In this document: positions 7,877 through 10,192 of the stretch, in pieces
Position numbering within the stretch: the stretch's first letter is position 1
How the letters are laid out: every line of letters starts with the position of its first letter
Assembly: GCA_034439615.1 (NCBI GenBank)
Contig: JAWXAT010000034.1
Coordinates: forward strand, 1 to 64,000
Direction: 5' to 3'
Source of the DNA: Oligoflexia bacterium
GTDB lineage: Bacteria; Bdellovibrionota; Bdellovibrionia; JABDDW01
DNA length: 64,000 nt
Translations under genes and position numbers: made by a program
The notes under the pieces: generated by a model
Seen by the model: the letters and a program-made list of their open reading frames with translations, nothing else
The model's database searches: none
Told to the model about the DNA's origin: nothing

Positions 7877-9160
7877 CTAATTTAGACTTGGACAGCTCGC
7901 ACAAGGTGGTTGTTTGTTTTTAGCCTTCCTGGCTAGAAATGCAGACTTTTTATTCTCTTGAAGTTTGGTTCGCTCAGGATCGTCCCACTGAGATTTGAAA
8001 ATTTCAATAGGTACACCACCTTTGTGGACTGCCAATGGCACGACGTCGTTATGCTGCCTAAAATAAAAATTTGCTTTTCTTAAGAGATCTTCGCCACTCT
8101 TAATTTTTTGATGATACAAAAATCGATTCTTGAGTGAATGAAACAGTCCCTCAATCATTGAGTTTGAAAAATGCACATCAACTTGAGCAAGAATACGCCG
8201 AAGTCTGTTTGACGTGATAAATTGAATAACCTTTCCATTATTATTTTCTTTTCCTGGGTCCATCATTACATCTGAAGAAATATCCGTGCCCAGTAATTCT
8301 CTAGATTTCTGACGGGCAAGCTTTAGAGTTTCGACTGTTTCTTGGGCTGTGATCTCGTTTGTCACTCGCCACGCCAAAACATACCTAGAAAAATTATCGA
8401 TGATGGCTTGAATATAAAACTTTACGTTAGGTGCGATTGCCACTTCAGTGACATCAACATGCCAGATTTCATTGGGCTTTGTGGCTCTAATACCTGTTTT
8501 CTTAAATTCCTTTTTCTCTAATCTCCAAGGCCTACACCACTCAAACACTCTGAAGTACTTGTACCAGGTATCAACAGAGCAAAATAACTCACCAGTTCTT
8601 TGTGCAAGCAGGTGAAGAGATGCGATCGAGATATGGGCGTATTTCTTGGCAGTGACAATTTTTTTCATCGATGAGATTTCATCTTCAGTTAACTGCGAAG
8701 CTTTTCTTCGCTCGCACGGGCTCTTTGTATTATTACAAAGAGAAATCTCAGAGGCCCACCGCCTGTACGAGCTTTTGGTAAGCCCTATGGCTTCAAGACA
8801 GTGGCTTAATTTGTTGTGCTTTAGACTTTCTTGAATAGCTGCTACGATTTGTGCTCGAGACTGCTTGCTTCTTAACTGCTTAGTTCGAAAGTCAAATGGG
8901 AATACCTTTCTGACCGTCTCAAGTAAACGGCGCATAGACTTTTCTTTGGCAAGTTCATTCTCTAAAAATTCAGATTTTTTTCTGTAAACAGATTCAAACT
9001 CGATAACATTTGTTGTGTCTGTTTGCCTCTGTGTTTTAACCCAGTATTGAGCGGTTGTGCGCGGGATCTTCATGTCTGGAAAGAGATAGACATTTCGAGC
9101 GCGAGCGACTTCTTTTTTTACAACATTTGGGTACGATCGATATTTAAGGGCTGCTTCCAT
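7877..9160 (-). CDS. DDE integrase-core transposase
   Basis: A 427-residue transposase with a retroviral-type integrase core. An N-terminal DNA-binding half (helical, PRTTAQYWVKT, then a second HTH around KSSYRRWASE) leads to the catalytic core: Asp in WHVDVTEV, Asp in MMDPGKENNNG and Glu in SNSMIEGLFHSLKNRF, with spacing fitting the D,D(35)E pattern. The C-terminus ends in an unusual CASCPSLN. I start at 9160 (MEAALKYRS); an in-frame GTG at 9214 is possible. The organisation is single-frame, not the two-frame layout of IS3. I could not find matching terminal inverted repeats, so element borders stay undefined. The neighbourhood has small orphan frames on both sides, consistent with an old or domesticated insertion. 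Confidence 0.85.
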   Translation of the reverse strand: MEAALKYRSYPNVVKKEVARARNVYLFPDMKIPRTTAQYWVKTQRQTDTTNVIEFESVYRKKSEFLENELAKEKSMRRLLETVRKVFPFDFRTKQLRSKQSRAQIVAAIQESLKHNKLSHCLEAIGLTKSSYRRWASEISLCNNTKSPCERRKASQLTEDEISSMKKIVTAKKYAHISIASLHLLAQRTGELFCSVDTWYKYFRVFEWCRPWRLEKKEFKKTGIRATKPNEIWHVDVTEVAIAPNVKFYIQAIIDNFSRYVLAWRVTNEITAQETVETLKLARQKSRELLGTDISSDVMMDPGKENNNGKVIQFITSNRLRRILAQVDVHFSNSMIEGLFHSLKNRFLYHQKIKSGEDLLRKANFYFRQHNDVVPLAVHKGGVPIEIFKSQWDDPERTKLQENKKSAFLARKAKNKQPPCASCPSLN

Positions 9161-9243
9161 AAGGTGTCCAATCCTACAGACGAAAAATTCGGCAGCTCGG
9201 GTGCAGAATTTCACATTGCTCTGTTGTTTTAATGTGTTAGGTG

Positions 9244-9268
9244 CGGCTCAAACTTAAAGTTTGAGCCG
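9244..9268. repeat. Perfect 25-bp palindrome upstream of the integrase gene
   Basis: CGGCTCAAACTT and AAGTTTGAGCCG flank a single base. It is 83 bp before the chosen integrase start. It could be a terminator for minus-strand transcription coming from the right, an element end or a recognition site; the minus strand lacks a T-run after it. Confidence 0.6.
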
Positions 9269-9573: not shown

Positions 9574-9678
9574 TTACAGAAGTGCGATTTTAAATGGTGG
9601 TTTTATTTTAATTGGAGGAATGGGACCAAATATTTCCCAATATTGCTCTAGAAAATCTAAATATTCATCTAATGTCAC
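9574..9678 (-). CDS. 34-aa protein overlapping the nucleotidyltransferase gene
   Basis: GTG-initiated frame of 34 codons (TLDEYLDFLEQYWEIFGPIP, then PIKIKPPFKIALL). GGTGG lies 4 nt before the GTG, and the frame begins 14 nt before the upstream gene's stop, a layout typical of translational coupling. The amphipathic DEYLDFLEQYWEIFGP segment followed by a proline/lysine tail looks like a selected small protein rather than chance, and resembles short proteins I recall near such nucleotidyltransferases in deltaproteobacterial genomes; that memory is not verified. A role as partner or antidote of the nucleotidyltransferase is inference. Confidence 0.6.
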   Translation of the reverse strand: MTLDEYLDFLEQYWEIFGPIPPIKIKPPFKIALL

Positions 9679-10192
9679 TGTTACCACCTAATTTTTTAAT
9701 AACTTCCCATTCATTAAAGAGATCTGCATATTCTTTTATTCTTTTCCAATCCATAGAACTATTATGAGCTAAAATAAGTGCTTGAATATCGGCTTTATCT
9801 TGAAGTTCACGTGTCGGTTCATTTTTGTAAGCTTGAATTTTGAGACCAATTATATCTTCTGGCATAACTACACGGGTTGAAAGCTTTTCTGAATCTTGTG
9901 CCAGGCTCAACATTTTTTGGCTGAGGGGTCGATTGGCTAAAATAATATCTAAATTTCCAACACCTTGAAATTGTAAAACATCATCTGTTTGGTGGACAAG
10001 TTTGAAACCACTCTTTGTAAGGCTCTCAATAATAATATTTTTCTTTTTGCCATCAGCTAAAAAATCAATATCGGCAGTAGCTCGGTTGATGCCATGTGCT
10101 GCCAATGCAAAACCACCTATGAGCGCGTGTTCAATGCCCTGAGCTTGAAGACACGCGCTGGATATTGTTAAAGTTTTTCTTAAGTTGATCAT
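9665..10192 (-). CDS. Nucleotidyltransferase-fold protein (MNT/AbiEii-like)
   Basis: A 175-residue protein of the DNA polymerase-beta-type nucleotidyltransferase fold. Gly26-Gly27 (LIGGFALAAHG) and Asp41/Asp43 (TADIDFLA) form the signature. A helical C-terminal half includes the MPEDIIGLKIQAYKNE segment typical of AbiEii/MNT-like stand-alone enzymes, followed by DKADIQALI. Relatives transfer NMP to RNA or protein targets, often as toxin or antitoxin components. It has a tiny overlapping gene downstream (9574-9678). There is no Shine-Dalgarno before the ATG at 10192, but TATACT lies 6 nt upstream, so a leaderless transcript is possible. The true substrate cannot be read from the sequence. Confidence 0.82.
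   Translation of the reverse strand: MINLRKTLTISSACLQAQGIEHALIGGFALAAHGINRATADIDFLADGKKKNIIIESLTKSGFKLVHQTDDVLQFQGVGNLDIILANRPLSQKMLSLAQDSEKLSTRVVMPEDIIGLKIQAYKNEPTRELQDKADIQALILAHNSSMDWKRIKEYADLFNEWEVIKKLGGNSDIR

What the first reader, a model, noticed from the sequence alone, without database searches (positions are those of the whole stretch)
9574..10192. Nucleotidyltransferase with a hidden 34-aa overlapping partner
The MNT/AbiEii-like nucleotidyltransferase is followed by a GTG-start 34-codon frame that begins 14 nt before its stop and has its own GGTGG site. The small protein has an aromatic-acidic helix and a proline/lysine tail, so it is unlikely to be random. Many stand-alone nucleotidyltransferases work in toxin-antitoxin pairs, usually with HEPN or AbiEi partners; a 34-aa partner would be a new arrangement.
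Basis: partly seen in the sequence, partly recalled or inferred. Interest (0 to 1): 0.65.

Follow-up and report, generated by a model that had tools for sequence, protein, structure and literature searches.

The report
Toxin-like nucleotidyltransferase with tiny overlapping partner
A bacterial enzyme that closely resembles known tRNA-modifying toxins overlaps a gene for a 34-residue protein, and relatives in more than ten bacterial phyla keep the same pair together, so the tiny protein is real and is most likely the enzyme's built-in inhibitor.

Summary
A 175-aa nucleotidyltransferase (window 10192-9665, minus) overlaps by 14 nt a GTG-started 34-codon frame (9678-9574, minus) with its own GGTGG site. 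The small frame is conserved: an ORF of the same family directly follows 89 of 89 assessable homologous enzymes from about ten phyla, usually overlapping and never in the enzyme's frame. It shows coding-type substitution (codon positions 0.34/0.25/0.55) and a conserved C-terminus (Leu last in 103 of 118). Pfam, NCBIfam, PADLOC and PDB hold no such family. Outside the Bdellovibrionota-centred clade the partner is mostly 60-81 aa; here only its C-terminal helix and tail remain, a change that happened once (100/100 support). By sequence and predicted fold the enzyme's nearest solved structure is MenT1, a tRNA-modifying toxin, and the MenT catalytic residues are kept. MenA1, the 68-aa antitoxin of MenT1, works through one 32-residue helix, but its gene lies upstream and it is not detectably homologous. 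No other gene is conserved nearby. Best reading: a compact, translationally coupled toxin-antitoxin module with an unnamed minimal antitoxin. Toxicity and inhibition are inferred, not shown.

The parts
9665..10192 (-). Nucleotidyltransferase CDS, 175 aa, MenT/AbiEii-like (proposed toxin). Residues matching the MenT set: T39 (10078-10076), D41 (10072-10070), D43 (10066-10064), K118 (9841-9839), D135 (9790-9788)
9574..9678 (-). Small partner CDS, 34 aa, GTG start (proposed antitoxin): helix module VTLDEYLDFLEQYWEIF plus Pro/Lys tail ending FKIALL
9665..9678 (-). 14-nt overlap of the two frames (partner in the +1 frame)
9684..9688 (-). GGTGG, Shine-Dalgarno-like site 5 nt before the GTG
   Evidence: sequence inspection
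9679..9687 (-). Extra three codons if the in-frame GTG at 9687 is used (37 aa); less likely because homologues start at the 9678 position

Best explanation
The pair is a compact two-gene toxin-antitoxin module. The enzyme is a MenT-like nucleotidyltransferase that would block growth by adding nucleotides to an RNA, most plausibly the 3' end of tRNA. The tiny downstream partner is its antitoxin. It is translated by coupling: ribosomes finishing the enzyme start the overlapping partner at once, so inhibitor is made wherever toxin is made. The partner's short aromatic-acidic helix would dock on the enzyme, and its conserved tail, with a free C-terminal hydrophobic residue, would bind a pocket. 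Binding would occlude the active site and/or move the T39 loop towards bound NTP so that the enzyme phosphorylates itself, as shown for MenT1-MenA1. Shown here: the pair, its conservation, the coding signal, the overlap, the catalytic signature and the MenT1-like predicted fold. Inferred: toxicity, tRNA as target, binding, translational coupling, and which neutralising route is used.
For: Partner ORF present at 89/89 assessable enzyme loci and no other conserved neighbour family, so the two genes are the whole module. Blind partner search: 26/26 good hits in the class are beside the enzyme. 86 of 87 tabulated partner ORFs have ATG/GTG/TTG, most starting within the end of the enzyme gene, commonest arrangement ATGA/GTGA. 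Enzyme: AbiEii Pfam hit 4.6e-7; nearest solved structure by sequence MenT1, 1.3e-7, and by fold MenT1/MenAT1, Foldseek 3.9e-10, TM about 0.7, from a model with pLDDT 96. T39, D41, K118 and D135 invariant in 59 sequences, D43 at least 90%; they align with MenT1 T39, D41, K137 and D152, of which D41, K137 and D152 are needed for toxicity (PMC10435456). Antitoxin-like asymmetry: partner without enzyme occurs (5 of about 27 Omnitrophota cases, some beside other TA genes), whereas the enzyme without partner was seen once, in a divergent relative (L232). Patchy spread: 26 good hits in 144 genomes, absent from the two other members of the family. A single helix is enough to neutralise and auto-phosphorylate MenT1 (PMC10435456, PMC11375011).
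Against: No functional data. Gene order (enzyme first) is the reverse of MenAT1 and AbiE. The partner profile has no PDB match, so no detectable homology to MenA1. No phage, plasmid or viral copy was found. The model also resembles the aminoglycoside enzyme ANT(2'')-Ia (TM about 0.66). The complex could not be modelled here.
Confidence: 0.62

Rival explanations
1. Two-subunit housekeeping or resistance-type nucleotidyltransferase: the small protein is an activating or substrate-binding subunit, and the pair modifies a small molecule, protein or RNA without being toxic.
For: Strict co-occurrence and co-inheritance (mirror-tree r 0.70) fit an obligate subunit; predicted fold also close to ANT(2'')-Ia and CCA-adding enzymes; the free C-terminus could complete an active site; one natural fusion exists (L215/L233).
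Against: Nearest sequence and structure are MenT1; patchy distribution; partner occurs alone more often than the enzyme does; no conserved metabolic neighbour. In the fusion the enzyme has lost its C-terminal helices, which suggests decay rather than a working single-chain enzyme.
Confidence: 0.25
2. The small frame is not a separate protein but a C-terminal extension made by ribosomal frameshifting at the end of the enzyme gene.
For: The partner frame is open across the enzyme's end in many loci; L009/L052 carry A AAA AAC directly before the stop in the -1 frame; three sequences have CTA/ATA instead of a start codon at the -1 position.
Against: Both the +1 (51 loci) and the -1 frame (35 loci) are used, so no one shift would do; 86 of 87 have a start codon, and those without one at -1 have ATG 34-40 nt upstream; in the window an in-frame stop lies just before the GTG pair; SD-like sites are common; orphans exist.
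Confidence: 0.05
3. The partner itself is the toxin and the nucleotidyltransferase the antitoxin, as in HepT-MntA, where the enzyme AMPylates and silences a HEPN toxin.
For: Such a role reversal is known for MntA-type nucleotidyltransferases (own knowledge, not tested here); the partner is small and has aromatic residues.
Against: The partner has no family match and no HEPN signature; partner-only genomes exist, enzyme-only ones hardly; the enzyme is MenT1-like by PDB profile and fold.
Confidence: 0.07
4. The small frame is a chance ORF.
For: 34 codons with a GTG start can arise by chance; no tool call supports this reading.
Against: Conserved across phyla with third-position bias and a fixed C-terminus.
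Confidence: 0.01

Closest known systems
MenAT1 (Rv0078B-Rv0078A) of Mycobacterium tuberculosis (PMC10435456, PMC11375011)
   Same: Nucleotidyltransferase of the same fold and catalytic set (nearest PDB hit by sequence and structure); a very small, mainly helical partner; one helix of 32 residues is enough for neutralisation; T39 conserved as possible phospho-acceptor
   Different: MenA1 is 68 aa and upstream; here the partner is 34 aa, downstream and overlapping; no detectable sequence homology between the partners; here the conserved part includes a fixed C-terminus, whereas the C-terminus of MenA1 is disordered and dispensable
AbiE (AbiEi-AbiEii), type IV toxin-antitoxin
   Same: Enzyme matches the AbiEii Pfam model above its cut-off
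   Different: No AbiEi (winged-helix antitoxin) beside it; enzyme is short (175 aa); gene order reversed
MNT-HEPN (HepT-MntA, type VII)
   Same: Small two-gene module with a minimal nucleotidyltransferase
   Different: No HEPN partner; enzyme nearest to MenT among solved structures
ANT(2'')-Ia aminoglycoside nucleotidyltransferase
   Same: Similar predicted fold (TM about 0.66)
   Different: Acts without a partner protein (own knowledge); lower similarity than MenT1

Membership tests
MenT-type (DUF1814/AbiEii superfamily) nucleotidyltransferase | Fold and profile match | tested here: met
   Pfam AbiEii 30.5 bits, cut-off 22.5; PDB profile hit MenT1 1.3e-7; Foldseek MenAT1 3.9e-10, TM about 0.7
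MenT-type (DUF1814/AbiEii superfamily) nucleotidyltransferase | Catalytic residues equivalent to MenT1 T39, D41, K137, D152 | tested here: met
   T39, D41, K118, D135 invariant in 59 sequences; equivalence from the HMMER alignment
MenT-type (DUF1814/AbiEii superfamily) nucleotidyltransferase | Toxic; adds nucleotides to tRNA 3' ends | not testable with these tools
   needs expression and tRNA assays
MenA1 antitoxin | Sequence homology to MenA1 | tested here: not met
   partner profile A3 finds no MenAT1 chain among PDB sequences at E up to 10
MenA1 antitoxin | Gene upstream of menT | tested here: not met
   partner is always downstream
AbiE type IV system | AbiEi winged-helix antitoxin gene adjacent | tested here: not met
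   none beside the window pair; no conserved neighbour family in the related loci
MNT-HEPN (type VII) | HEPN-domain partner | tested here: not met
   partner of 33-81 aa without any Pfam match; no other conserved neighbour
Toxin-antitoxin module (general) | Two-gene conserved unit in variable context, patchy distribution | tested here: met
Toxin-antitoxin module (general) | Toxicity of one product neutralised by the other | not testable with these tools
   no experiment possible

The most novel reading that the evidence does not exclude
A previously unnamed antitoxin family, reduced in one clade to about 33 residues, neutralises a MenT-like tRNA nucleotidyltransferase through one short helix and a conserved free C-terminal tail (F-K-L type) that binds in or beside the active site or triggers self-phosphorylation of T39; it would be a very small protein antitoxin, made by overlap-coupled translation downstream of its toxin.
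Probability: 0.4. Interest if true: 0.75.

Novelty: new variant of a known kind. Interest (0 to 1): 0.62.

Why it matters
It reveals a widespread, apparently unnamed small-protein family (no Pfam, NCBIfam, PADLOC or PDB match in the copies searched) that gene callers may miss because it is very short and overlaps the preceding gene. The single evolutionary change from about 70 to about 34 residues gives a natural minimal inhibitor of a nucleotidyltransferase and a direct test of whether one helix and a tail suffice to silence MenT-like enzymes outside mycobacteria.

Tried and rejected
Chance ORF: rejected. Programmed frameshift: considered because L009/L052 hold A AAA AAC before the stop; rejected because both frames are used and start codons are present. 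HEPN or AbiEi partner: none. MenA1 homology: none by profile search. Family libraries: no match for short or long partners. Plasmids, phages and viral contigs: no relatives. Literature: searches found MenAT and AbiE work but no description of this pair (open-access library only). A model of the complex was not attempted: the structure tool takes single chains of unchanged sequence, and the only natural fusion (L215/L233) came from a search tool whose loci its rule does not list. The promoter/terminator scan at the window locus was uninformative.

Full report
OBSERVATION. The minus strand of the window carries an ATG-started ORF of 175 aa (10192-9665) and, overlapping its end by 14 nt in the +1 frame, a GTG-started ORF of 34 aa (9678-9574) with GGTGG 5 nt before the start. 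A second in-frame GTG at 9687 would add three residues, but homologues begin at the position of 9678.

THE ENZYME. It matches Pfam AbiEii (4.6e-7, above cut-off), DUF2204 and weakly DUF6036. A profile of ten relatives finds MenT1 of M. tuberculosis as nearest solved protein by sequence (8an4/8an5/8rr5, 1.3e-7). An AlphaFold2 model from 59 relatives (mean pLDDT 96, pTM 0.89) has MenAT1/MenT1 as its best Foldseek hits (3.9e-10, TM about 0.7), then ANT(2'')-Ia. G26, R37, T39, D41, D82, R88, K118 and D135 are invariant over 59 sequences, D43 at least 90%. T39, D41, K118 and D135 correspond to T39, D41, K137 and D152 of MenT1, of which D41, K137 and D152 are needed for toxicity (PMC10435456).

THE PARTNER IS REAL. 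The ten closest enzyme homologues in the same class (about 40-63% identity) are all followed by a similar 32-45 aa ORF. A scan of one genome per species gave 80 further loci from Bdellovibrionota, Omnitrophota, Elusimicrobiota, Nitrospirota, Thermodesulfobacteriota, Myxococcota, Verrucomicrobiota, Pseudomonadota, Spirochaetota, WOR groups and others. Of the 91 loci in all (a few genomes were fetched twice), the partner was found at 88 by profile and inspection (L089 scores weakly but has the typical ending) and at L092 by reading the frames; the remaining two loci are cut at contig ends. In one search, 86 of 87 partners have ATG (76), GTG (7) or TTG (3). The commonest arrangement is the 4-nt ATGA/GTGA overlap (23), and nearly all the others overlap by up to about 40 nt. 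The partner lies in either non-enzyme frame (51 and 35 loci, counted from the offsets), which argues against a frameshifted extension. L055 has no such start near the overlap and may use CTG. In 42 independent pairs chosen by enzyme identity, differences by codon position are 0.34, 0.25 and 0.55 over 2045 codons.

ANATOMY. Long partners (mostly 60-81 aa) have an N-terminal helical module followed by the shared C-terminal module: D-x-Y-I-x-F-L, then F-x-N-H, K-P-F and an end of the F-K-L or M-R-L type. AlphaFold2 gives helices at 5-15, 18-30 and 43-57 and an extended tail. The last residue is Leu in 103 of 118 distinct partners and hydrophobic in 117 of 118, with K/R/L before it in 105; such fixation of the very end points to recognition of the free C-terminus. 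The window protein is the C-terminal module alone. On a tree of 59 enzymes, those with short partners (at most 46 aa) form one side of a single branch with 100/100 support, one change against 19.8 in shuffles, so the size change happened once. That it was a loss of the N-terminal module, rather than a gain elsewhere, is inferred; the tree is unrooted. The clade is Bdellovibrionota with a few records labelled Pseudomonadota or Myxococcota (transfer or misbinning).

LINKAGE. A blind search of 144 genomes of the class with the partner profile gave 26 good hits, all beside this enzyme. Enzymes outside the subfamily (E above about 1e-16) lack it. In Omnitrophota 22 of about 27 assessable partners sit behind the enzyme. 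Five lack it: L149, L152 (24 nt behind what looks like an AbiEi-AbiEii pair), L153, and L157 and L159 (beside BrnT-like genes). One enzyme relative (L232, 7e-31) has no recognisable partner. One locus (L215/L233) fuses enzyme and partner, with the enzyme's C-terminal helices missing; it may be decay. No other neighbouring gene family recurs. Enzyme and partner similarities correlate (r 0.70; shuffled maximum 0.06), which shows co-inheritance, not contact.

MECHANISM. The best reading is a toxin-antitoxin module. A MenT-like enzyme would modify RNA, probably tRNA 3' ends. The partner, made by coupled translation, would bind it with one helix and a tail. The precedent is direct: MenA1 (68 aa) neutralises MenT1, residues 1-32 suffice, and binding causes self-phosphorylation at T39 (PMC10435456, PMC11375011); T39 is invariant here. 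Partner-only genomes being commoner than enzyme-only ones fits an antitoxin. Toxicity, target, binding and route of inhibition are inferred. The main rival is a non-toxic two-subunit enzyme.

NOVELTY. Small antitoxins for MenT enzymes are known, but this partner family matches nothing in the Pfam, NCBIfam, PADLOC or PDB copies searched, lies downstream rather than upstream, and in this clade is only about 33-46 aa. Literature searches of an open-access library found no description. I file it as a new variant of a known kind.

Noticed in passing
L215 / L233 (219-aa frame): Natural fusion of the enzyme (without its C-terminal helices) to a long-form partner in one genome of the G144 phylum; decay, misassembly or a working single chain.
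   Followed up: partly
L152: An orphan partner gene lies 24 nt behind what looks like a complete AbiEi-AbiEii pair, as if added to or left beside an unrelated AbiE system.
   Followed up: partly
L157, L159: Orphan partner genes lie beside BrnT/BrnA-like toxin-antitoxin genes (recognised by eye, not by a profile search).
   Followed up: no
L055, around the enzyme stop: The partner frame has no ATG/GTG/TTG near the overlap; a CTGA overlap suggests a CTG start. L009/L052 carry A AAA AAC directly before the enzyme stop.
   Followed up: partly
L097 vs L098: Enzymes 95% identical but partners only 68% identical, a possible case of fast partner evolution.
   Followed up: no
window 7877-9214 (-) and 9244-9268: Single-copy rve-type transposase gene downstream of the pair, preceded by a near-perfect palindrome CGGCTCAAACTTAAAGTTTGAGCCG.
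   Followed up: partly
G000:C17:53270-53710 (L024): A second, larger (325 aa frame) AbiEii-like nucleotidyltransferase in the same genome; its partner was not examined.
   Followed up: no
L043 4210-4726: Another small nucleotidyltransferase gene of a different type lies about 275 nt upstream of the enzyme-partner pair.
   Followed up: no
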